The translations under genes were made by a program, and so were the position numbers. Source: Dactylosporangium vinaceum (GTDB taxonomy: Bacteria > Actinomycetota > Actinomycetes > Mycobacteriales > Micromonosporaceae). From it: DNA of 64,000 nt. Shown here piece after piece: positions 10,930 through 58,073 of this stretch. The stretch's first letter is position 1, and every line of letters begins with the position of its first letter. Location of the stretch: contig NZ_CP061913.1 of the NCBI RefSeq assembly GCF_019904175.1, positions 4,774,001 to 4,838,000 of the forward strand, given 5' to 3'. A model generated the notes under the pieces. It did no database searches. It had not been told where the DNA came from and saw nothing but the letters and a program-made list of their open reading frames with translations.

Positions 10930-11808
10930 GTGACTGCGCACGAGCTCGACGATCCGGTGGGGGCGTCGCTACGGGGACGCCACGCGCACCTCGCCCGCCG
11001 GGCCGGGTCGGCGGCCACCTACGTCGACGGGGTCTCGACGTTCGCCGCGGTGCCGGCGGAGCCGGTGGCGGCCGACTGGGACGACCTGGCCCGCCTGCTC
11101 GGGCCCGGAGCATTCGCCGACCTGTTCAGTGCCGCGGTGACGCCGCCCGGGGACTGGGAGCCGGTGTTCGAGCTCGACGGTTTCCAGATGGTGCTCGACC
11201 GGCCGGCCACCGGCCCGGCCGGAGCGGAGCCTTCTGCGGCGGCGCTCTCTGCGGCGGGCTCGGCGGCGGCGCTCTCTGCGGCGGGCTCGGCGGCGGCACT
11301 CTCTGCGGCGGCTTCGTCGGCGGTGGTCTCGTCGGCGGTGCTCTCTGCGGCGGGCTCGGCGGCGGTGGTCTCGGCGGCGGGCTCGGCGGCGGCGCGGCCG
11401 GCGTTGGTGCGGCTTGGACTGGCGGATGTGCCGGACATGCTGGCGCTGACCGAGCAGGCGCGACCGGGGCCGTTCTGGGCGCGGACCATCGAGATGGGTG
11501 CCTTCTGCGGTGTGCGCGAGGAGGGTGCGCTGGTGGCCATGGCCGGGGAGCGCCTCGCACCGCCCGGCTGGACGGAGATCAGCGCCGTGTGCACCGCACC
11601 GCACGCCCGCGGCCGGGGCCTGGCCGAGCGGGTGGTCCGGCGCGCGATCGACGGGATTCTCGGGCGGGGCGAGCGGGTCCTGCTCCACGTCGCCGCGGCG
11701 AACACGGGGGCGATCCGGCTGTACGAGCGGCTGGGGTTCGTCGTGCGCCGTCCGGTCCGCTTCCACGGCTACCGGGTGCCGCCGGAGCCGCTCAGGCCAG
11801 CTGCTTGA
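10930..11808 (+). CDS. GNAT acetyltransferase with Ala/Ser repeat linker
   Basis: A 292-residue N-acetyltransferase of the FR47-like class. The C-terminal GNAT fold shows MGAFCGVREEGALVAMAGE, EISAVCTAPHARGRGLAERV (acetyl-CoA loop), HVAAANTGAIRLYERLGF and a closing basic strand. The N-terminal domain (residues 1-95) is joined to it by about 55 residues of AAALSAAGS-type repeat encoded by a tandem DNA repeat. Without that insert the protein would match the usual length of about 235. Start GTG. Substrate unknown. Its 3' end overlaps the convergent GNAT gene by 17 bp. Confidence 0.85.
   Translation: MTAHELDDPVGASLRGRHAHLARRAGSAATYVDGVSTFAAVPAEPVAADWDDLARLLGPGAFADLFSAAVTPPGDWEPVFELDGFQMVLDRPATGPAGAEPSAAALSAAGSAAALSAAGSAAALSAAASSAVVSSAVLSAAGSAAVVSAAGSAAARPALVRLGLADVPDMLALTEQARPGPFWARTIEMGAFCGVREEGALVAMAGERLAPPGWTEISAVCTAPHARGRGLAERVVRRAIDGILGRGERVLLHVAAANTGAIRLYERLGFVVRRPVRFHGYRVPPEPLRPAA
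11232..11397 (+). repeat. 27-bp in-frame tandem repeat
   Basis: Near-perfect copies of a 27-bp unit (core CTCTCTGCGGCGGGCTCG) encode AAALSAAGS repeats within the acetyltransferase, then degenerate into TCGTCGGCGGTG-type units. The period is a multiple of three, so the frame is kept. Confidence 0.85.
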
Positions 11809-12292: not shown

Positions 12293-13217
12293 ACCGCCGA
12301 CCCTATCCGGCCCGCCCGCACCGGGCCGGAGCGGTGACAACCACGATTGACACCCGCAAATTGCGCGGCGGGCTCGGCGCGGACGGTGCTCGCCCACGAG
12401 ACGAACACCGTCCACAGTGCGCGTCCACGCAAACGCACAGCACCCCGCACATAAACGCATACTGCCGCCGCTGCTCAGGGCGCGCCTCGCATGCCCGCAG
12501 CCCATCTGCGCCCAGACACGCAGCCGCGTCGCCCGGCCAAGCGAGCGGCGTAGCCATCCACGCGCCGCTGACCACGCAACGTTTACGGCAGTCACTGGGC
12601 GATGCCGACCACGCGAACGCACATCTGGCGCCACGTGGACGCGCATCTCACGCGGGCACCACGTGCATCGCTGTCCGCCGCGTGCAGAGCAGGCCGGGCG
12701 AACGAGCATCCTGGGTCCTGCGTAGCGACGGAAATGTGCACCCGCTCACGTGCGAAGTTGCAACCGCGCAGACCGGCCGACCCAGACGCGCAACTCGCTT
12801 GCATGCGAAGTTGCAAGCGCACAAGCGCACAAGCGCACAAGCGCACAAACGCACGAACATGCAGACGCGCGAAAGTCCGACTGCTCGAGCGTCCGACTGC
12901 GCGAGCGTCCGACTGTGCGAGCGTCCGACTGTGCGAGCGTCCGACTGCGCGAACGCCCAGCCGTGCGCACGTCGACTGCGCGAGCGCCCAGCCGTGCGAG
13001 CGCCCAGCCGTGCGAGCGCCCAGCCGTGCGAACGTGTAGACGTGTGCGAATGTGCAGAACGACCGAGCTGAGCGCGTAAAGGTGCGTCTGCTCCTGAATG
13101 AAGACGTGCGAACAGTCGCGTTCGTGCAAGTGGATGCGTGCGGCCGCTCACATGTGGGCGGCCGCGCGTAAGTGTGCGTGTGTTTGGCGACAGTGGGTGT
13201 ATGTGTGGCGGCGTCTG
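12293..13217. other. 925-bp gene-free region with repeats
   Basis: No coding frame with protein-like composition is seen here. The stretch is less G+C-rich than its surroundings and full of short repeats. AAGCGCAC-type octamers recur at 12809-12851, and a 16-bp array covers 12869-13043. GTGCG/GCGCAC words are dense throughout. It lies upstream of a minus-strand GNAT gene and downstream of a fadE gene, so it may hold the former's promoter, but no clear -35/-10 pair was found. Confidence 0.6.
12869..13043. repeat. 16-bp tandem array, about 11 units
   Basis: Units such as GCGAGCGTCCGACTGT (12901-12916, 12917-12932) shade into GCGAGCGCCCAGCCGT (three copies at 12980-13027). All are 16 bp except one of 15 bp. 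There are no unique spacers, so this is a minisatellite rather than a CRISPR array. The period is not a multiple of three, consistent with non-coding DNA. Confidence 0.85.
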
Positions 13218-38411: not shown

Positions 38412-39241
38412 TGCCCGTGTACTCGTTCGAAGGCGTCATCCCGGTCGTCCACCCGCGCGCATTCGTGCATCCGACGGCCGTCCTGATCGGCGACGTGCAC
38501 GTGCGTGCAGCGTGCTATGTCGGACCGTTTGCGAGTCTGCGCGGAGACTTCGGCCGTATCGTCATGCTGGAGGGTTCGAATCTGCAGGACTCCTGCACGT
38601 TCCACACCTTTCCCGGCACGGAGGCGATCCTCGGCCGGGACGGGCACGTCGGGCACGGCGCGATCCTGCACGGCTGCCGCATCGGCGACGGTGCGCTCAT
38701 CGGCATGAACGCTGTCGTCATGGACGGTGCCGAGGTGGGCGCCGGGGCGTTCGTCGGCGCGCACGCCTTCGTCAGAGCCGGCTTCGTGGTGCCGCCACGG
38801 ACGCTCGCGGCCGGATCGCCCGCCCGGGTCGTGCGTGACCTGACCGCGCAGGAGCTCGCCTGGAAGGCCAACGGCACGAGGGTGTACCACGAGTTGACCG
38901 TCCGCAGCCGCGAAACGATGCGCGAGTGCGCACCGCTGCCCGAGATCGAGCCGGACCGCCCGGCGCTGACCACCGGCGCCGAGACCTCGGTGCCGCTGGA
39001 CGTCGCCCGAGCCGGACGGCCGGCCGGCTCTGCGGCGTCCGGCAGTTCGGACTCAGCTGGGTCCGGCAGTTCGGAGCCGCGCGCGCTGGCCGATGGTGCG
39101 GCATCACCCGCGTCGGCGGACCGTGCGGCGTTGCCCGTGCCCGTGGACGGCTTGGCATCGGCGGGGCCGCGGGCCGGCGGGCCGGTGATCGGGACCCGTT
39201 CGGCTGGGTCTGGTGAGCCAAGCAAGCGCTTGGTAGAGTGA
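38411..39241 (+). CDS. gamma-carbonic-anhydrase-like (PaaY type), long tail
   Basis: A 276-residue left-handed beta-helix protein. VHPRAFVHPTAVLIGDVHV, RGDFGRIVMLEGSNLQDSC, HVGHGAILHGCRIGDGALIG (zinc His residues) and GFVVPPRTLAAGSPARVVR match the PaaY/CaiE gamma-carbonic-anhydrase group, some of which are CoA thioesterases that rescue trapped CoA. The core ends near residue 195. The last 80 residues are Ala/Ser/Gly-rich (AASGSSDSAGSGSSEP) and are encoded partly by 24-bp repeats. The final codons cover the KstR2 box that serves ipdF. It may remove dead-end CoA esters of the pathway. Confidence 0.82.
   Translation: MPVYSFEGVIPVVHPRAFVHPTAVLIGDVHVRAACYVGPFASLRGDFGRIVMLEGSNLQDSCTFHTFPGTEAILGRDGHVGHGAILHGCRIGDGALIGMNAVVMDGAEVGAGAFVGAHAFVRAGFVVPPRTLAAGSPARVVRDLTAQELAWKANGTRVYHELTVRSRETMRECAPLPEIEPDRPALTTGAETSVPLDVARAGRPAGSAASGSSDSAGSGSSEPRALADGAASPASADRAALPVPVDGLASAGPRAGGPVIGTRSAGSGEPSKRLVE
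39221..39239. promoter_or_regulatory. KstR2-like operator, ipdF operon
   Basis: AGCAAGCGCTTGGTAGAGT contains an exact KstR2 box (39221-39234), and its last T begins a TAGAGT -10 (39234-39239). Seven nt later is the ipdF ATG, the same arrangement as at fadA6 and the F420-type gene. The box lies inside the last codons of the upstream gene. Confidence 0.85.
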
Positions 39242-42725: not shown

Positions 42726-43784
42726 ATGCACTTCGCGCCGACCGACGAGCAGCTCGCCCTCGCCGACGCCGTCCGTGCACCGCTCGCCGCGGGGGACTGG
42801 GAGGCACTGGCCGAGATCGGCGTGTTCGCCGCGTTCACCGAGCTCGGACTGGCCGAGACGGATCTTGTCGGGGTCCTCGAAGCGGCCGGCTACGCGGCGA
42901 TCGCCGAGCCGTTCTCCGCCACCGCGTTCGTCGCCGCGCCGCTGCTCGCCGCGATCGGCGACGCGCGGGGGACCGACGGTTCACGCATCGCGCTCGCCGG
43001 GCCGCACGGGCTTGCACCGTTCGGCGCGAAAGCGGACTGGATCCTGCACCTCGATGAGCGAACTGCGCGTTTGGGTGCGGCGGCCGGCGCGTCGGTGTCC
43101 GCGGTGGACAATTCGCTCAGCCTCGCCTACTCGACCGGCGCCGATATGCTCACCGACGACGTCGCACTTGTGCGCATCGCGCATCTGCGGGCCGGGATCG
43201 CGCTCGCCGCCGAGCTCGTCGGGGTCGGGCGGCGGATGCTCGACCTGACCGTTGCGTACGTCAAGCAGCGCCGGCAGTTCGGCGTGCCCGTCGGCAGCTT
43301 CCAGGCGGTCAAGCACCAGCTCGCCGACGTCCTGCTCGGCCTCGAGTTCGCCGGGCCCGAAGTGCTCGCGGCCGCGTGGGCGGTCGAGCACGACAGGGCC
43401 GCTCGGCACGCCGTGCATGCTCATCCGACCGCGGACGCTCGGCACGCCGTGCATGCTCATCCGACCGCGGCCGCTCGGCAAACCGGGCACTCTCGCCCGA
43501 CCGCGGACGCTCGGCAAGCTGCGGACGATACGTGGCACGGCGGGGGCGGACGGCCGGGCGTGGACGCGCAGCAGGCCGTCGACGCCGCCGTCGTGCTCGC
43601 GGCCGAGGCGTCCCACCGGGCCGGGCGGGTTGCCGTGCAGTGTCACGGTGCGATCGGGTACACGGTGGAGTACGAGCTGCACCGGTACCTCAAACGCGGC
43701 TGGGCCCTGGAAGCCCTCGCCGACACCGGGCGGCGCCTGGACCGGCTCGCCGCATCCCTCGACCTTCCGGGAGAGCGTCCATGA
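42726..43784 (+). CDS. small acyl-CoA dehydrogenase subunit, repeat insert
   Basis: A 352-residue FadE of the divergent subunit type. MHFAPTDEQLALADAVRAPL and LGLAETDLVGVLEAAGYAAI form the N-terminal part, RRQFGVPVGSFQAVKHQLAD the C-terminal domain, and QCHGAIGYTVEYELHRYLKR the closing helices. Residues about 226-265 are an insert of three 12-residue units (ARHAVHAHPTAD) between the two C-terminal helices. It would pair with the FadE31-like protein. Without the insert the length is near 312 residues, normal for this class. Confidence 0.82.
   Translation: MHFAPTDEQLALADAVRAPLAAGDWEALAEIGVFAAFTELGLAETDLVGVLEAAGYAAIAEPFSATAFVAAPLLAAIGDARGTDGSRIALAGPHGLAPFGAKADWILHLDERTARLGAAAGASVSAVDNSLSLAYSTGADMLTDDVALVRIAHLRAGIALAAELVGVGRRMLDLTVAYVKQRRQFGVPVGSFQAVKHQLADVLLGLEFAGPEVLAAAWAVEHDRAARHAVHAHPTADARHAVHAHPTAAARQTGHSRPTADARQAADDTWHGGGGRPGVDAQQAVDAAVVLAAEASHRAGRVAVQCHGAIGYTVEYELHRYLKRGWALEALADTGRRLDRLAASLDLPGERP
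43401..43520 (+). repeat. 36-bp in-frame tandem repeat
   Basis: Three units at 43401-43436, 43437-43472 and 43473-43508 with a partial fourth. The first two differ at a single base and the third has diverged. They encode ARHAVHAHPTAD-type repeats in the small FadE and keep the frame. Confidence 0.9.
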
Positions 43785-47307: not shown

Positions 47308-49054
47308 CGGCGCCGGCGACCGCGCGGAGGCGGTCGCGGAGCTGCGATTTGGCGACCTTGCCGCCGGAGCCGCGCGGCAGGTCGTCGACGATCTCCAGGC
47401 GCTCCGGCCAGTTCTCCCGGGACACGCCGCGGGCGTCGAGGTGGGCGCGCAGATCGTGCAGGTCGAGCGTGGCCGCCTCGCGCAGCACGACGAACGCGCA
47501 CACCCGCTCGCCGAACGTCGGGTCGGGCACCGCGACCGCCGCCACCATCGCCACCGCCGGGTGGGTGCCGACCTGGTCCTCGACGGCGGCCGCGCTGATG
47601 TTCTTGCCGCCGCGGATGATGAAGTCGGACTTGCGGTCCACAACGCGCAGGTAGCCGTCCGCGTCAATGGTGCAGATGTCGCCGGTCAGCATCCAGCCGT
47701 CCGGTGTGAACAGCTTGTCGTTGGCCTCCGGGTCGGCGAAGTACCCGAGGCACGTCGCCGGGCCCGCGCACGCCGCCTGGCCCGGGCCGCCCACGGCGGT
47801 CACGTCGGTGCCGTCCTCCGCGAACAGCCGGACCTGCATCTCGTCGATGACCTTCCCGGCGGTGCGCAGGCGCTGCTCGACCGTGTCGGTGACGGACGTG
47901 CGCGACAGCGCGCCGGTCTCGTTCGAGCCGAAGAACTGCAGCACCTTGGCGCCGGTGCGCCGCTCGAACTCGGCCGCCCGCTCGAACGGCACCGCCTCAC
48001 CACCGGTGAACATGCACCGCAGCGACGACAGGTCGACCTCGTCGAGGACGGGCGAGTTCAGCATCATGATGAACTGCGTGCTCACACAGCAGACGACTGT
48101 CACCCGCTCGCGCTCGATGAGCCGCAGCGCCTCGTCGGCGCTGAACCGGGGCATGACGACCGTCGGCGCGCCCAGCAACGTCGGCGTGAAGTTGGCGGTC
48201 CACTGCGCGAACCCGTACGGCGCCGGGATGAGCGTCAGGAACACCTCGTCGGTGCGGAGGTCGCCGCACTCGACAGCGAGTTCGTGGTAGTAGAACCAGC
48301 GGTTCTGGTTGTGCACCACGCACTTGGGCATCCCGGTCGTGCCCGACGTCGAGTTGAGCAGGTGGATGTCGCCGAGGCCGAGCTGCCGCCCGTGAAGCGT
48401 TGCGTCGCCGTCGGTGTGCGAATGCGGTTGGTCGGGCCCGCCGTCGGTGTCCGAACGCGCAATGTCGGGTCCGCCGTCGGTGTGCGAATGTGCAGGTTTG
48501 CCGCTGTCGTTACTCGGGTGGGCAGGCGCGTTTGCGGCACTGCTGCTGGTGTGCGCGTCCATGATGCTGCCCGGGCCGAGGACGATGTGCGTGTCGATGC
48601 CCAGGCCGTCGATCAGGCCGGCGACCGGCTCCCCACGGTGTTCGTTCAGGCTGACCAAGGCCGTTGCGCCGCCGACCGTGAGCAGGTGACGGACCTCGAG
48701 ACGGGCGGCGCGGGGGCCGATCGCGACAACGACGACGCCGGCCTTCATCGCGGCCAGGTAGGCGACGTGTACCTCGACGCCGTCCGGCAACAGCACGCCG
48801 ACCCGGGCGCCTTTCGCCAGGCCGGACTGCACGAGCTGCTGCGCGAACGCGGTTGACCAGGCGTCGAAGTCGCGCCATGTCATGCGGTCGGCGCCGGCGA
48901 TGAAAGCCAGGCCGTCCGGGTGCTCGCGCGCGTGGCGGCGGACGACGTCCGGCAGTGTTTCCGCACCCCATCGGCCGACGTCGGCCAGGCGGTCCGCGAC
49001 ATACCGTTCGTGAACGCTGCCGGCCGCCGGTGCCGTGCCGGGTGGGAAGTGCAC
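47285..49054 (-). CDS. acyl-CoA synthetase with His/Asp repeat insert
   Basis: A 589-residue ANL ligase, paralogous to the one at 45.3 kb. HLLNSTSGTTGMPKCVVHNQ is the ATP loop, LIPAPYGFAQWTANFTPTLL the subfamily mark, QFFGSNETGALSRTSVTDTV, DGWMLTGDICTIDADGYLRV and VVDRKSDFIIRGGKNISAAA follow. LPRGSGGKVAKSQLRDRLRA has the catalytic Lys. Residues about 170-220 are a low-complexity insert with 11-residue units (SHTDGGPDQP). GTG start after AGAGGGG. The gene runs from a KstR2-like box shared with the divergent thioesterase gene. Confidence 0.86.
   Translation of the reverse strand: MHFPPGTAPAAGSVHERYVADRLADVGRWGAETLPDVVRRHAREHPDGLAFIAGADRMTWRDFDAWSTAFAQQLVQSGLAKGARVGVLLPDGVEVHVAYLAAMKAGVVVVAIGPRAARLEVRHLLTVGGATALVSLNEHRGEPVAGLIDGLGIDTHIVLGPGSIMDAHTSSSAANAPAHPSNDSGKPAHSHTDGGPDIARSDTDGGPDQPHSHTDGDATLHGRQLGLGDIHLLNSTSGTTGMPKCVVHNQNRWFYYHELAVECGDLRTDEVFLTLIPAPYGFAQWTANFTPTLLGAPTVVMPRFSADEALRLIERERVTVVCCVSTQFIMMLNSPVLDEVDLSSLRCMFTGGEAVPFERAAEFERRTGAKVLQFFGSNETGALSRTSVTDTVEQRLRTAGKVIDEMQVRLFAEDGTDVTAVGGPGQAACAGPATCLGYFADPEANDKLFTPDGWMLTGDICTIDADGYLRVVDRKSDFIIRGGKNISAAAVEDQVGTHPAVAMVAAVAVPDPTFGERVCAFVVLREAATLDLHDLRAHLDARGVSRENWPERLEIVDDLPRGSGGKVAKSQLRDRLRAVAGAATGSSGS
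48405..48497 (-). repeat. 33-bp in-frame repeat
   Basis: About three units of 33 bp encode HSHTDGGPDIA-like repeats inside the ligase, with the frame kept. GTGTGCGAATG words here recur in the intergenic arrays at 13.0 kb. Confidence 0.75.
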
Positions 49055-49765: not shown

Positions 49766-50115
49766 CCCATATGTCGGCGTGCACGACGTGAAACCTGGAT
49801 CGTGGACGAACTGAATCTGGAGCGCGCACGCCCGACATTCGGAGCGCGCACGCCCGACATCGAAAGCGTGCACGCCCGAGATGCGGAGCGTGCACAGCTC
49901 GACATCGAAAGCGCGCACGACCGGATGTCCAGTGTGCGGTCCCGACATCTACCGCCAGCCGTGCCAGGTAGCGGTGCAATGGCGGCGCCGATGCGTTGCA
50001 CGGCTCGACATCCGGCCGCGCACAACCCGACATGCGAGGTGTGCGCGACCAGACACCTGCGGCGTGCGCGATCGGACATGGGAGGCGGGCACGAACCGGC
50101 GTCTACGATGCTCGG
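49766..50115. other. 350-bp gene-free region with 22-bp repeats
   Basis: No convincing gene. Positions 49819-49950 hold five or six units of 22-23 bp with the core GCGCACGCCCGACAT. Further degraded CCGACAT and TGTGCG words run on to about 50090. The period is not a multiple of three. The region separates the thioesterase from a kinase-like gene and may include its promoter. Confidence 0.65.
49819..49950. repeat. 22-23-bp tandem array
   Basis: GGAGCGCGCACGCCCGACAT opens units at 49819 and 49841. Diverged copies follow at 49863, 49885 and 49908. There are no unique spacers. Confidence 0.8.
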
Positions 50116-52542: not shown

Positions 52543-52876
52543 GCCGGCACCCCCGTTCTGCTGCCACACCGCCGATGTACTGGAACACCGGAATCTCGCC
52601 GGCGCGCCGGCGTCTCACCGCGACACGGGCGCTCTGCTGCGGCAGCGGCCTGTTGCTGCGGCAGCGGCCTGTTGCCGCGACGCCGACGCTGTGCTGCGGC
52701 ACCGGTGCTCGGTTCGGGCACCGCGTCTCGCCGGCGCATCAGCGTTGGCCCGAGCGCTGCGTCTGGCTGGGGCAATGCGGAGTCTGGCCGGGGTGTCGGC
52801 GTCTGGCTGAGGCGGCGGCCTGAGCGGGAACCGCCGGACTGCTGGATGGCGGCCACGTCGTTTGGTGCCACACCGC
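52543..52876. other. 334-bp gene-free region with 19-bp repeats
   Basis: No coding frame is supported. TGCTGCGGCAGCGGCCTGT occurs twice in tandem (52635-52653, 52654-52672), followed by two diverged 19-bp units to 52710. The rest is G+C-rich with GGCGTCTGGCTGGGGC-like near repeats. The region lies downstream of the alcohol dehydrogenase and upstream of the ligase, both on the minus strand. Confidence 0.6.
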
Positions 52877-54175
52877 TCATGCCCGATTCCAGTCGAAGAG
52901 GTCCACCTGGGCCGGCCCGAGAGCGCTGTATCTGCCCTTGTACCGCGTGATCTCCAACGCCTCCGGCAGCGCCTCGACACCGGCCAGGCGGTGGCTGATC
53001 AGCCCCTGCAGGTCGACGTCACCGCGCTGCACCAGACGCAGTGCGTGCTCGAACACGGTGCTGCCGGGCGCGTAGCCGCCGGCGCCCGAGCGCGGGTGCA
53101 GCAGCGACACTGAGCGTTCGCGCAGGCGGGCGAGCGGTGCCGGTGCGTGATCGGACAGCACGGACACCATCACGACCGTGCCGCCGCGCCGGGCGCACCG
53201 CACAGCCTGCTCGAACTCACCTGCACATTCGAACACCACGTCCGCGCCGATGCCGTCAGTTGCGTCCATGACGTGCGCGACGATGTCGTCTGCTGTCGCA
53301 TCGAGCACAAGATCAGCACCTGCTCGCTTCGCGAGTGCACGCTTGGCGGCGCTGCGGCCGGTGACGATGATGAGGCCCGCGTTGCCGTGCCGGGCGACCT
53401 GCGTGTGCAGCACACCCATGACGCCGGCTCCGATGACGAGCACCGTGTCGCCAGGCTTGACGGCGGCGATCGCGTGGCCGTGGATTGCGCCGGCCAGGGG
53501 CTGCACGGCGGCGGCGTGCGCGGCGGGCACGCCGTCGGGCACGCGCACGACGGTCCGGGCCGCAACGACGACCCGCTCGGCGAACGCGCCCGGGCCGGTG
53601 AAGCCGAGGACCTCCGGGGAGCGGCAGGCGTCCGGGCGGGCGCGGCGGCAGGCGGCGCACTGCCCGCAGGTGGCGGTCTCGACTGCGGTGACCCGATCGC
53701 CGACCGCAAGGCCGGAGTCGGGCCGACCGCCGGCCGGAGCAGATGTCGGAAACGCCGCGACCAGGGGCGTTCGAGTGGCCAGGTCCAGCTGTGAGGGGTA
53801 GCCGGCTGAGGAAGTGCCTGCCGAAGGCGCGCCCGGTGCAGGGGCGCCGAGTGCCGGGCTGACTGACGCGGGAGTACGCGACGGAGGGATGCGGGACGGG
53901 GGAGTACGCGGCGAAGGAGGGCGGGGCACGACGCCGGGGCCGAGGGCGGTGATCACGCCGGCGAACTCGTGGCCGCCGAACCGGGTCGGGCCGGCCGCGA
54001 GGCGCTCGGCCAGGACGGTGTGCATGGCGATCGGCTCGCCCGCCAGCAGCATGCATTCCGTGACGCTCGGCTGGACGCAGGCCACGTCGATGACGACCTC
54101 GCCGGGTCCGGGGACCGGGTCGGGGACGTCCTCGACGGCTGCGTCGCCGAAGCCGCGCAGGACCAGTGCCCGCAT
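52877..54175 (-). CDS. zinc-dependent alcohol dehydrogenase, repeat insert
   Basis: A 432-residue medium-chain dehydrogenase. MRALVLRGFGDAAVEDVPDP starts the GroES-like domain, FGGHEFAGVITALGPG carries a catalytic-zinc His/Glu pair, TATCGQCAACRRARPDACRS the four structural-zinc Cys, and DTVLVIGAGVMGVLHTQVAR the NAD(P)-binding Rossmann fold. Between GALGPG and LAVGDRVTAVETA, about 70 Pro/Ser-rich residues (PSRTPASVSPALGAPAPGAP) are inserted; removing them gives a normal length near 360. Likely oxidises an alcohol or threonine-like substrate. Divergent from the oxidoreductase operon across paired promoters. Confidence 0.85.
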   Translation of the reverse strand: MRALVLRGFGDAAVEDVPDPVPGPGEVVIDVACVQPSVTECMLLAGEPIAMHTVLAERLAAGPTRFGGHEFAGVITALGPGVVPRPPSPRTPPSRIPPSRTPASVSPALGAPAPGAPSAGTSSAGYPSQLDLATRTPLVAAFPTSAPAGGRPDSGLAVGDRVTAVETATCGQCAACRRARPDACRSPEVLGFTGPGAFAERVVVAARTVVRVPDGVPAAHAAAVQPLAGAIHGHAIAAVKPGDTVLVIGAGVMGVLHTQVARHGNAGLIIVTGRSAAKRALAKRAGADLVLDATADDIVAHVMDATDGIGADVVFECAGEFEQAVRCARRGGTVVMVSVLSDHAPAPLARLRERSVSLLHPRSGAGGYAPGSTVFEHALRLVQRGDVDLQGLISHRLAGVEALPEALEITRYKGRYSALGPAQVDLFDWNRA

Positions 54176-54288: not shown

Positions 54289-54840
54289 ATGGAACGCGAA
54301 GTGCTCGTCACGGGCGTCGGGGGACAGGGGATCCAGCTGCTCGCCAAGACGCTCGCCCTGGCCGCGACCCGGGAAGGCCGCTACGCCATGCTCGCGGCCG
54401 ACTACGGCGGTGAGATGCGCGGCGGGCCGTCCAAGGCCGGCGTCGTCATCGGCGACGCCCCGCTCATGGCGCTGCCCATCCTGCCCTCGGCCTGGTCGGC
54501 GATCTTCGCCCACCACCGGCACAGCGAGGGCGTCGAGGACCGGCTGCGGACCGGGGCCCTGGTCCTGGCCAACACGCCGCTTGTCGACCCCGGCACGTTC
54601 CGGGCCGACCTGCGGGTGTTCGCCATCGACGCGATGGCCCGGGCGAAGGGCGCCGAGGCGCCGAACGCGTCCGGGTTCGTGCTGCTCGGGGCGTACAACG
54701 CGCTGACCGGGCTTGTCCGCGCCGGTTCGCTGGTGTCGGCGATGGAAGAGCTGCTCCCGCCGTACCGCAAACAGCACGCGGCCGCCAACGCACGAGCCCT
54801 GGAAGCGGGCGCTCAGGCCCTCGAAGGAGTCGCGGCATGA
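54289..54840 (+). CDS. 2-oxoacid:ferredoxin oxidoreductase, gamma subunit
   Basis: A 183-residue KorC/PorG-type subunit. EVLVTGVGGQGIQLLAKTLA is the glycine motif. MLAADYGGEMRGGPSKAGVV and PILPSAWSAIFAHHRHSEGV are typical. In four-subunit KORs the gamma protein docks on the alpha-beta core that converts a 2-oxoacid plus CoA and ferredoxin to an acyl-CoA and CO2. AAGGAGGGG precedes the ATG. First in an operon with alpha, beta and a GntR regulator. Confidence 0.87.
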   Translation: MEREVLVTGVGGQGIQLLAKTLALAATREGRYAMLAADYGGEMRGGPSKAGVVIGDAPLMALPILPSAWSAIFAHHRHSEGVEDRLRTGALVLANTPLVDPGTFRADLRVFAIDAMARAKGAEAPNASGFVLLGAYNALTGLVRAGSLVSAMEELLPPYRKQHAAANARALEAGAQALEGVAA

Positions 54841-54868: not shown

Positions 54869-55927
54869 ATGACGCTTGAGCTGCTCGAAGGGACCGCGGC
54901 GATGGCCGAGGCCGCGATCGTCGCCGGCTGCCGGTTCTTCACCGGGTACCCGATGTCGCCGTTCACGGGACTTCTGGAGGAGATGTCGCGGCGGCTGCCC
55001 AAGGCCGGCGGGGTCTGCCTCAACGCGGAGAGTGAGATCGAGGGCGTCAACATGACGCTCGGTGCCGCCGCGGCCGGCGCGCGGGCGGCGACCGGGTCGT
55101 GCGGGCAGGGGATCGCGCTCATGCAGGAGGCGATCGCCGAGGCCGCGCTCAACGAGACCCCGTTCGTCGTGTTCAACCTGGCCCGCAACCAGCAGGACTA
55201 CTTCCAGGCGACCCGCGGCGGCGGCTGGGGCGACTACCGCACCATCACCCTCGCACCGAAGGACATCCCCGAGGCCGTCGAGCACACCCAGCTGCTGTTC
55301 CACCTGGCCGACAAGCACCGGGCGCCGGTCGTGCTCTACGGCGATCCACTGCTGGCCCAGACCCGGGTCGGCGTTGAGATCGAGCGCCGCGACTTCGGCG
55401 AGCTGCCCGCGAAGGACTGGGCGCTCGACGGTACGGGCGGCGGCACCGGGCACAGCCGCCAGATCTGGACCTGGGCCATGGGCAAGGCCACCGCCCCCGG
55501 ACTGGGGCCGGACGGGCACTGGCGGGCGATCGCCGAGAAGTTCGACCGCATCGGCGCGCTCGAGCAGCGGCACGAGGAGCGCGACCCGGGCGCCGAGACG
55601 ATGGTCGTCGCGTTCGGGTCGGCGGCCAAGTTCGTCGAGCACGTCACGGCCGAACTGCGCGCGGAGGGGCACGACATCGGCTGGTTCCGGCCGATCACGC
55701 TGTGGCCGTTCCCGGGCGACGCGCTCACCGCGGCCACCCGCGGCGCGAAGAACGTGCTCGTCTTCGAGCTCAACGGTGGGCAGATGCTCGACGATGTGCG
55801 CATACACGCGCACGATCGCTCAGCCGTGCGGTTCATCGGCGGGGTGAGCATCGCCGAGTCCGGCCTGTCGTACGGCCCGCTCCTGGACGCCCCCGTCCTG
55901 CGCCGCCGCATCCTGGAGGCCCTGTGA
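54869..55927 (+). CDS. korA: 2-oxoacid:ferredoxin oxidoreductase, alpha subunit
   Basis: A 352-residue alpha subunit with the transketolase-like domains of KorA: TAAMAEAAIVAGCRFFTGYP, MSPFTGLLEEMSRRLPKAGG and NAESEIEGVNMTLGAAAAGA (a conserved Glu in the binding region). RAATGSCGQGIALMQEAIAE and NLARNQQDYFQATRGGGWGD follow, and ITLWPFPGDALTAATRGAKN is the third domain. Oxygen-tolerant KORs of this type occur in actinobacteria and work on 2-oxoglutarate or branched 2-oxoacids; substrate not determined here. GTGA overlap with beta. Confidence 0.88.
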   Translation: MTLELLEGTAAMAEAAIVAGCRFFTGYPMSPFTGLLEEMSRRLPKAGGVCLNAESEIEGVNMTLGAAAAGARAATGSCGQGIALMQEAIAEAALNETPFVVFNLARNQQDYFQATRGGGWGDYRTITLAPKDIPEAVEHTQLLFHLADKHRAPVVLYGDPLLAQTRVGVEIERRDFGELPAKDWALDGTGGGTGHSRQIWTWAMGKATAPGLGPDGHWRAIAEKFDRIGALEQRHEERDPGAETMVVAFGSAAKFVEHVTAELRAEGHDIGWFRPITLWPFPGDALTAATRGAKNVLVFELNGGQMLDDVRIHAHDRSAVRFIGGVSIAESGLSYGPLLDAPVLRRRILEAL

Positions 55928-56229
55928 CCACGGACGACGCTGTAACCACGGACGACGCTGCTTCGACGGGCGATGCAGTGACCAGGCATGACGCCGTGAC
56001 AACGAGCGACGCTGTCACCACGAACAGCGCTGCGACGATGAACGGTGCTGTCACCACAACCGGCGCCGCGACGACGAGCAGTGCTGTCACCACAACCGGA
56101 GCCGCGACGACGAGCGGCGGTGTCACCACGAACAGCGTTGTGACCACGAGCGGCGCTGCGAGGGCGAGCGGCGCCGTCGCCGCGGACGATGCTGCGACGA
56201 CGAGCGGCGCTGTGGCCACGATCGACACC
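55924..56229 (+). repeat. 18-bp in-frame tandem repeat, 17 units
   Basis: Seventeen consecutive 18-bp units, for example GTCACCACAACCGGCGCC and GCGACGACGAGCGGCGCT, run from the start codon of the beta subunit. The units differ from each other mostly at synonymous or Thr/Ser/Asp/Asn positions, so the array is old or shaped by selection. Confidence 0.92.
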
Positions 56230-56979
56230 TCACGGCCGCCGGTCCGGCCGGCGAAGACGGCGGCTGCGGCGAAGCCGAACCTGATCCTCGGCGAGCACTC
56301 GCTGTGCCCCGGCTGCGGCGAACCGGTCGCGCTGCGCATTCTGCTCGAGGTGCTGCAGGACCTGGACATCGTGCAGCGCACCATCGGGGTTGTCGGGCAC
56401 GGCTGCTACGGCAGCTTCGTGCGCATCATGGACGTCGACGTGCTGCAGTGTCTGCACGGTCGTGCACCGGCGTGCGCGACAGGCATCAAACGTGTGCGGC
56501 CCGGCGTCGCGGTGTTCACGCTGCAGGGCGACGGCGACATGGCGAACGAGGGGCTGCAGGAGGTCCTGCACGCGGCTGCGCGCGGTGAGAACATCACGTG
56601 CGTGATGCTCAACAACGGCGTGTTCGGCGACACCGGCGGACAGCAGACGGCGACGACAGTGCTCGGCCAGCGGACGAAAACGAGCATCGACGGGCGTGAC
56701 CCCGAGACGCACGGCTACCCGATCCCGGTGGCCGACCTGGTCGCCGGGCTGGACGGCGTCGGCTATGTGGCTCGCGGTGCGGTCTCCACGGCGGGCGCGG
56801 TACTGCAGACCAAGCGCATGATCCGCAAAGCCTTCGAGACCCAGCTCAACCGCGGCGGCTTCTCGCTCGTCGAGATCCTCACCATGTGCCCGACCGGCTG
56901 GTTCGTCCCCACCGCGGAAGGGCCCGAATACCAGCAGGACACCATGGAGCAGCGGTACAAACTGGGCGAGCTGGTATGA
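55924..56979 (+). CDS. korB: 2-oxoacid:ferredoxin oxidoreductase, beta subunit with repeat leader
   Basis: A 351-residue TPP-binding beta subunit. Residues 1-102 are 17 hexapeptide repeats ([VA]TT[DSTN][DSG]A), with a Pro/Ala linker to about 115. The enzyme proper starts NLILGEHSLCPGCGEPVALR, where CPGC gives two of the Fe-S Cys. GCYGSFVRIMDVDVLQCLHG, LQGDGDMANEGLQEVLHAAA (TPP-binding GDG...N, about residue 201) and NNGVFGDTGGQQTATTVLGQ follow. Normal KorB is about 240-280 residues, so the N-terminus is an expansion. The true start could be inside it, but no better ribosome-binding site is evident. Confidence 0.85.
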   Translation: MTTDDAVTTDDAASTGDAVTRHDAVTTSDAVTTNSAATMNGAVTTTGAATTSSAVTTTGAATTSGGVTTNSVVTTSGAARASGAVAADDAATTSGAVATIDTSRPPVRPAKTAAAAKPNLILGEHSLCPGCGEPVALRILLEVLQDLDIVQRTIGVVGHGCYGSFVRIMDVDVLQCLHGRAPACATGIKRVRPGVAVFTLQGDGDMANEGLQEVLHAAARGENITCVMLNNGVFGDTGGQQTATTVLGQRTKTSIDGRDPETHGYPIPVADLVAGLDGVGYVARGAVSTAGAVLQTKRMIRKAFETQLNRGGFSLVEILTMCPTGWFVPTAEGPEYQQDTMEQRYKLGELV

Positions 56980-57683
56980 AACTGGAGCGCGCGAACACCA
57001 GCGAGGCCGTCGCCGCCTACGTGCTCGGCCGCCTGTTCTCCGGCGAACTGCGCAGCGGGCAGCGCCTCGACCTCGACGCCATCGCCGAGGAGCTCGGGGT
57101 CAGCCGGGTCCCCGTCCGCGAGGGCCTCATCCAGCTCGAACGCGACGGACTCGTCGAACGTGCACACTACAAACGCGCGTTCGTGAGCGATTTCGACGAC
57201 GCGACCGTGCGCGAGGCGTTCGAGTTGTACGGCATGCTCAGCGCGCTCACCAACCGGCGCGTCGCCCGCCGCCGCGACCCCGCGGTGCTCGAGGCGCTCG
57301 GCAAGCTCGACGAGTCGCTGGCCGGCTGCGACGACCCGGACGAGTTCGAGGCGCTGGCCCGCGAGTTCCGCCGGGTCGTCAACGTCGCCGGCGCCGGCAA
57401 CCACCTGCGTGCACTGCTGCGCACGTTCTCCGGCCTGGTGCCGGTCGCCGCCCGGTTCGCGATTGACGATTCGCTCACCGACGAACGCGCGGCTCTGCAC
57501 GCCGAGTACATCGCGCTGCGCGATCGCTCACCGGCCGCGGCCGGCGCGGCGGCCCTCGCGCACATCCGCCTGACCGCTGACAACGCCATCGCGGCCCTGC
57601 ATCGCCGCGGGGTCTTCCCGGTCGTCACGCCGGGCGACGACTGGGACGACGTCGCCGAAGTCGTGGATGAGAGCGACGCATGA
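56976..57683 (+). CDS. GntR-family regulator, FCD domain
   Basis: A 235-residue FadR-type GntR regulator. The winged helix is LDAIAEELGVSRVPVREGLI plus QLERDGLVERAHYKR, about residues 28-65, and the C-terminal FCD helical domain includes FELYGMLSALTNRRVARRRD, VAGAGNHLRALLRTF and AALAHIRLTADNAIAALHRR. FCD proteins bind organic acids through a metal site of Asp and His residues. It is coupled by ATGA to the beta subunit and probably controls the KOR operon. Confidence 0.87.
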   Translation: MKLERANTSEAVAAYVLGRLFSGELRSGQRLDLDAIAEELGVSRVPVREGLIQLERDGLVERAHYKRAFVSDFDDATVREAFELYGMLSALTNRRVARRRDPAVLEALGKLDESLAGCDDPDEFEALAREFRRVVNVAGAGNHLRALLRTFSGLVPVAARFAIDDSLTDERAALHAEYIALRDRSPAAAGAAALAHIRLTADNAIAALHRRGVFPVVTPGDDWDDVAEVVDESDA

Positions 57684-57827: not shown

Positions 57828-58073
57828 ATGAATCAGAGCGCTCGCATCACCCGGGGGACCCTGCTCATCGAGGCCGACAAGTGCAAGGGCTGCGAGCTGT
57901 GCATCGCCGCCTGTCCGCCGGATGTGCTCGCCATGTCGGCCACGGTGAACGAGCTCGGCTACCGCTATCCGGTCCTGCACGAGGGCTGCACCGGCTGCAC
58001 CGCCTGCCAGCTCGTCTGCCCCGATTTCGTGCTCACCGTGTACCGGTACGATGGCGAGGGTGTCCAACGATGA
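57828..58073 (+). CDS. 2[4Fe-4S] ferredoxin (KOR delta)
   Basis: An 81-residue ferredoxin with two clusters: CKGCELCIAACPPDVLAMSA and CTGCTACQLVCPDFVLTVY. This is the delta subunit form (KorD) of four-subunit 2-oxoacid oxidoreductases, carrying electrons from the beta subunit. GGAAGGAGGAGG precedes the ATG. It overlaps the next gene by 23 bp and follows the GntR gene after 144 bp. Confidence 0.88.
   Translation: MNQSARITRGTLLIEADKCKGCELCIAACPPDVLAMSATVNELGYRYPVLHEGCTGCTACQLVCPDFVLTVYRYDGEGVQR

What the first reader, a model, noticed from the sequence alone, without database searches (positions are those of the whole stretch)
55924..56229. Seventeen hexapeptide repeats at the N-terminus of KorB
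The beta subunit of a four-subunit oxidoreductase begins with 17 perfect 18-bp units ([VA]TT[DST][DSG]A) before the CPGC cluster region. KorB normally starts close to CPGC. The leader is Thr-rich and could be a disordered tether, a glycosylated arm or a translation artefact. Its first codon overlaps the alpha stop (GTGA), so translation of the repeats is likely.
Basis: seen in the sequence. Interest (0 to 1): 0.7.

Follow-up and report, generated by a model that had tools for sequence, protein, structure and literature searches.

The report
In-frame repeat leader on KorB
One soil actinobacterium (a Dactylosporangium) carries a stuttered 18-base repeat at the very start of a conserved metabolic enzyme gene, adding about 97 probably floppy amino acids that none of its relatives have; it looks like a local coding minisatellite, one of several in-frame repeat insertions in neighbouring enzyme genes, rather than a new functional domain.

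Summary
The array is real. Seventeen in-phase 18-bp units fill 55924-56229, but they are degenerate (mean pairwise identity 66%; 8 of 17 fit the stated motif). The gene encodes the beta subunit of a 2-oxoacid:acceptor oxidoreductase in a Dactylosporangium genome. All six held congeners and more distant orthologues lack the array. Congener KorB starts M/V-(T/I)-IDTSxPP, 27-30 residues before CPGC. In the window the last unit (VATIDT) is that ancestral start, so 97 codons (291 bp) have been gained precisely between an unchanged Shine-Dalgarno/start codon and the old second codon. Only the first GTG has a strong Shine-Dalgarno. There are no in-frame stops and no indels, so I expect the leader to be translated. 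AlphaFold gives the leader pLDDT of about 28-47. The unit occurs nowhere else in the genome as an array, and its codons are not adapted (GCT is 10 of 24 Ala codons, against 2% elsewhere). Four other enzyme genes within 17 kb carry repeat-rich or low-complexity in-frame inserts absent from compared congeners, with lowered GC3. Most likely this is a tolerated in-frame minisatellite expansion at the ancestral start codon, in a repeat-rich stretch of chromosome. A selected function is not shown.

The parts
55915..55919 (+). Shine-Dalgarno GGAGG, 4 nt before the GTG start; same ATCCTGGAGG context in G001-G004
   Evidence: duplex energy -9.3 kcal/mol
55924..56211 (+). units 1-16 of the 18-bp array (derived hexapeptides, VTTxxA-like)
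   Evidence: absent in all six held congeners
56212..56229 (+). unit 17, GTGGCCACGATCGACACC = VATIDT, corresponds to the ancestral KorB start M/V-T-IDT; also resembles the other units (11.0/18 matches against 5.7 for in-frame control 18-mers)
55924..56979 (+). korB, beta subunit of 2-oxoacid:acceptor oxidoreductase, 351 aa including the leader; C128, C131, C161, C322 and GDGD invariant across homologues
54289..54840 (+). gamma subunit (POR domain, PorC/KorC-like)
54869..55927 (+). alpha subunit (POR_N + PFOR_II; VorB-like); stop overlaps korB start
56976..57683 (+). GntR-family regulator, ATGA overlap with korB stop
57828..58073 (+). delta-like ferredoxin subunit (best NCBIfam match OorD, below cut-off)
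53735..53935 (-). repeat/low-complexity insert in Zn-dependent alcohol dehydrogenase gene, absent in four compared congeners
48386..48574 (-). in-frame insert (11-aa units HTDGGPDxxxS) in acyl-CoA synthetase just before STSGTTG, absent in four compared congeners
43392..43556 (+). in-frame insert (12-aa units ARHAVHAHPTAD) in acyl-CoA dehydrogenase, absent in the three congeners aligned
39032..39223 (+). C-terminal Ala/Ser/Gly/Pro-rich extension of gamma-carbonic-anhydrase-like hexapeptide protein, absent in four compared congeners
52546..52874 (.). intergenic lineage-specific degenerate repeat (period 19)

Best explanation
The array is an in-frame coding minisatellite that grew at the start of korB in one Dactylosporangium lineage. 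SHOWN: 97 codons sit between the ancestral ribosome-binding site/start codon and the ancestral second codon; the last unit is the old start; all other orthologues examined lack the array; the rest of KorB is conserved with all cluster cysteines and the GDGD motif. INFERRED: the first six or so codons were copied in tandem by slippage or unequal exchange, later in 36-bp pairs, and diverged by point mutation; ribosomes still start at the original site through coupling with the alpha stop, so the enzyme carries a flexible, Thr/Ala-rich, exposed N-terminal leader that does not disturb the fold. It is tolerated, nearly neutral baggage, part of a repeat-rich chromosome stretch in which neighbouring enzymes also gained repeat-rich inserts.
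For: Orthologue starts and the exact 291-bp difference from G003/G004. Last unit equals the ancestral start and resembles the other units. 36-bp super-period and near-identical unit pairs. Zero indels and no in-frame stop, while several intergenic arrays in the window carry indels and non-triplet periods. Strong Shine-Dalgarno only at the first GTG. Unadapted codons: GCT 10 of 24 Ala against 2%; GC3 0.77 against 0.89-0.95. Core under purifying constraint: 88-90% amino-acid identity despite 0.42-0.50 fourfold-site divergence. Leader pLDDT 28-47, core mostly 70-98. Four further enzyme inserts nearby with lowered GC3.
Against: Unit-to-unit pN/pS is 0.60 in frame but 0.65 in a shifted frame, so selection on the peptide is neither shown nor excluded. 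Absence of stops is weak evidence: P = 0.81 under random substitution of the consensus. The window genome branches outside the other held congeners, so age and copy-number dynamics cannot be dated. No strain-level or expression data. Many units are quite diverged, so slippage must be old or followed by fast divergence. The Zn-ADH, synthetase and carbonic-anhydrase-like inserts are only partly periodic.
Confidence: 0.72

Rival explanations
1. The leader is a selected, functional disordered tether or docking arm, for example for partner recruitment, oxygen protection of the [4Fe-4S] cluster next to the N-terminus, or solubility.
For: Frame and register kept over 17 units without indels; chemically consistent T/A/D/S/G composition; the leader attaches about 30 residues before the first cluster cysteines.
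Against: Absent in every other orthologue examined; unadapted rare codons; no frame-specific purifying signal among units; neighbouring unrelated enzymes gained unrelated inserts, which points to a DNA-level process.
Confidence: 0.13
2. Translation really begins at an internal start (GTG 56212, the ancestral start, or another in-array start); the array is an untranslated or poorly translated spacer between alpha and beta.
For: In-frame GTG/ATG codons occur at 55978, 55996, 56038, 56140 and 56212; 56212 corresponds to the ancestral start.
Against: Internal starts have weak or no Shine-Dalgarno (-0.8 to -4.7 kcal/mol against -9.3 at 55924); no indel or stop in 306 bp; the GTGA overlap with alpha favours coupled initiation at 55924.
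Confidence: 0.12
3. The array is a folded beta-solenoid of hexapeptide repeats.
For: Six-residue period; AlphaFold draws short strands every six residues at pLDDT about 35-42.
Against: None of the units matches the left-handed beta-helix motif [LIV][GAED]xx[STAV]x in any register; no Pfam match even at E of 1; confidence far too low, and from general knowledge such models are a common artefact with tandem repeats.
Confidence: 0.02

Closest known systems
Intragenic tandem repeats / coding minisatellites (VNTR) of bacteria, e.g. in-frame structural variants in pe/ppe genes and tandem-repeat copy-number variation in M. tuberculosis (PMC12817950)
   Same: Head-to-tail units, length a multiple of three, frame kept, higher-order duplications; private to a lineage
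   Different: Sits at the start codon of a cytosolic redox enzyme, not in a surface protein or promoter; strain-to-strain copy-number variation not tested; units more degenerate than typical VNTRs (inference)
PARCEL repeat coding elements (PMC2996958) and Rickettsia palindromic elements (in-frame insertion from general knowledge; mentioned in PMC10969869, found but not read)
   Same: Repeat DNA that adds in-frame peptide to proteins
   Different: Those are dispersed families; this unit is found as an array at one locus only and neighbouring inserts have unrelated sequences
2-oxoacid:ferredoxin oxidoreductase beta subunits (solved chains 5b46_B and 6n2n_B)
   Same: Conserved CPGC, third and fourth Cys, GDGD; gamma-alpha-beta gene order with a ferredoxin gene nearby
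   Different: N-terminal leader of 97 extra residues; scores below NCBIfam cut-offs, so the substrate-level family is undefined

Membership tests
2-oxoacid:acceptor oxidoreductase beta subunit (PorB/KorB) | TPP-binding domain and relatedness to solved OFOR beta chains | tested here: met
   PF02775 E 1.9e-17; phmmer 5b46_B E 4e-22, 6n2n_B 2e-17
2-oxoacid:acceptor oxidoreductase beta subunit (PorB/KorB) | cluster cysteines CxxC...C...C and GDGD motif | tested here: met
   C128, C131, C161, C322 and G202-D205 invariant in 23 homologues
NCBIfam TIGR02177 PorB_KorB | score above curated cut-off | tested here: not met
   105 bits against 261.9: related, but not a member of that subfamily model
Coding minisatellite / VNTR | tandem head-to-tail units keeping the reading frame | tested here: met
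   17 x 18 bp, no indel, no stop
Coding minisatellite / VNTR | copy number varies between strains | not testable with these tools
   no second strain of this species held; congeners have zero copies
Dispersed in-frame repeat element (RPE/PARCEL-like) | same unit at many genomic loci | tested here: not met
   no other array; outside korB the best pattern hit is a lone site with one mismatch, the rest have two, and reversed-pattern controls give 10 hits
Left-handed beta-helix hexapeptide repeat | [LIV][GAED]xx[STAV]x in successive units | tested here: not met
   0 units, 0 in any register; no Pfam hit

The most novel reading that the evidence does not exclude
This chromosome stretch is subject to an active process that seeds and expands degenerate, frame-preserving tandem repeats at start codons, loops and spacers of ordinary metabolic genes, unrelated in sequence from site to site, so that several enzymes of one catabolic region acquired disordered inserts in a single lineage.
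Probability: 0.15. Interest if true: 0.6.

Novelty: new member of a known kind. Interest (0 to 1): 0.36.

Why it matters
It is a clean, polarised example of a 97-residue N-terminal extension arising by short tandem duplication at a start codon, with the ancestral start still readable as the last unit. The clustering of such inserts in neighbouring conserved enzymes of one species offers a test case for how bacteria with very large, GC-rich genomes gain disordered protein segments. It also warns that automated start-site calls and 'novel domain' readings at such loci should be checked against congeners.

Tried and rejected
Dispersed element: array protein and unit pattern searched in the whole own genome; no second array. 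Beta-helix: motif absent, no Pfam hit. Structured RNA in the array: fold z-score only -1.4. Selection on the peptide: pN/pS not frame-specific. Genome-wide repeat excess as the whole explanation: random samples give 14.5 arrays per 100 kb in G000, 13.8 in G003, 11.5 in G016; the window (28) and right flank (25) are locally rich, the left flank (10) is not, and random samples are overdispersed. Three core syntenic regions (nuo, pfkA, hyd) show only a mild G000 length excess; a fourth (pfkB) was barely syntenic and uninformative. Paper searches found no description of these repeats in Dactylosporangium. Family scans with wrong coordinates failed four times and were repeated (then 22, 23).

Full report
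OBSERVATION. The sequence at 55924-56229 holds seventeen 18-bp units in register, read GTG ACC ACG GAC GAC GCT ... GTG GCC ACG ATC GAC ACC. Lag-18 identity is 0.625 against 0.39 +/- 0.027 in codon shuffles (z 8.7); lag-36 identity is 0.71, so the latest duplications probably copied pairs of units. No unit has an indel and no in-frame stop occurs.

HOST AND GENE. The window is C1:4774001-4838000 of a single-contig 11.96-Mb genome. The genes are gamma (54289-54840), alpha (54869-55927), beta (55924-56979), a GntR regulator and a ferredoxin-like delta subunit, followed by an FAD/Fe-S oxidase. KorB is related to solved OFOR beta chains and keeps four invariant cysteines and GDGD, but is below NCBIfam equivalog and subfamily cut-offs, so the substrate is not assigned.

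COMPARISON. In six congeners KorB begins MTIDTS.PP, VTIDTS.PP or MIIDTS.PP; in G003/G004 the start is the same GTGA overlap after ATCCTGGAGG. More distant orthologues from Sciscionella, Solirubrobacterales, Acidimicrobiales and Microthrixaceae also start a few tens of residues before the C(P/A)GC motif. The window gene has 97 extra codons (291 bp; 343 against 52 bp in the gap): sixteen hexapeptides plus one codon. Its last unit, VATIDT, aligns with the ancestral start and resembles the other units (11.0/18 matches against 5.7 +/- 1.5 for 1708 in-frame control 18-mers, one of which does as well). I infer that the array was seeded from the gene's own first codons. The congener start hexamers themselves match less well (6.5-8.3/18), so this inference is moderate.

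TRANSLATION. The first GTG has the only strong Shine-Dalgarno (-9.3 kcal/mol; internal starts -0.8 to -4.7) and the overlap with the alpha stop. The coding arrays at 43400, 48406, 53865 and 55922 keep triplet periods without indels, while several arrays outside recognised genes (49819-49927, 52635-52819, 12867-13035) have indels and non-triplet periods. Absence of stops alone is weak evidence (P 0.81). Translation is therefore likely but not demonstrated.

NATURE OF THE LEADER. Composition is T 28%, A 24%, V 12%, D 10%, S 10%, G 9%. AlphaFold gives pLDDT 28-47 for the leader and mostly 70-98 for the core, with some low loops. Low-confidence strands every six residues are probably a repeat artefact; the left-handed beta-helix motif is absent and Pfam finds nothing. 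Codons are unadapted: GCT makes 10 of 24 Ala codons against 2% in the neighbouring genes, and GC3 is 0.77 against 0.89-0.95. Unit pN/pS is 0.60 in frame and 0.65 in one shifted frame, so selection on the peptide is not visible. The window genome lies outside the other held congeners (fourfold divergence 0.42-0.50 in korB), so there has been ample time for units to diverge.

SURROUNDINGS. Syntenic comparison with G003, G004, G005 and G006 shows 5-8 segments of 60-600 bp longer in the window genome and 0-2 longer in the congener across 15-25 kb. Besides korB, four enzyme genes carry inserts or extensions absent from the compared congeners: a gamma-carbonic-anhydrase-like protein (C-terminus), an acyl-CoA dehydrogenase, an acyl-CoA synthetase and a Zn-alcohol dehydrogenase; GC3 of the inserts is 0.66-0.83 against 0.84-0.91 for the rest. 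Control syntenic regions (nuo, pfkA, hyd) show a milder excess in the window genome. Repeat density is 28 per 100 kb in the window and 25 in the right flank, against 10 in the left flank and a mean of 14.5 in random samples, which are overdispersed. About 7 kb past the window another acyl-CoA ligase-like ORF holds three 10-aa repeats before its SGGAALP motif; whether congeners lack it was not tested. The local enrichment is suggestive, not proven exceptional.

CONCLUSION. The best-supported account is a tolerated in-frame minisatellite at the ancestral korB start. Shown: precise lineage-specific gain at the start, conserved core, kept frame. Inferred: slippage origin, translation, disorder, neutrality. 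The kind of object (coding tandem repeat) is known; its position at the start codon of a central redox enzyme, and the company of several private in-frame inserts in neighbouring enzymes, are the unusual points.

Noticed in passing
window 43392-43556: Acyl-CoA dehydrogenase has about 55 extra residues made of 12-aa units ARHAVHAHPTAD, absent in the three congeners aligned.
   Followed up: partly
window 48386-48574 (minus strand): Acyl-CoA synthetase has 11-aa repeat units (HTDGGPDxxxS) inserted shortly before its STSGTTG motif, absent in four congeners.
   Followed up: partly
window 53735-53935 (minus strand): Zn-dependent alcohol dehydrogenase carries a Pro/Ala/Ser-rich low-complexity insert not present in four congeners.
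   Followed up: partly
window 12867-13035, 49819-49927, 52546-52874: Degenerate arrays with periods 16, 22/44 and 19; the one at 52546-52874 is an intergenic gain against four congeners.
   Followed up: partly
G000:C1:4845084-4845165 (locus L194, about 7 kb right of the window): Another acyl-CoA ligase-like ORF with three 10-aa repeats (AEQRAQLSxA) just before its SGGAALP motif.
   Followed up: no
window 11236-11403: Ala/Ser-rich repeat (period 27, SAAALSAAG units) in an ORF; not compared with congeners.
   Followed up: no
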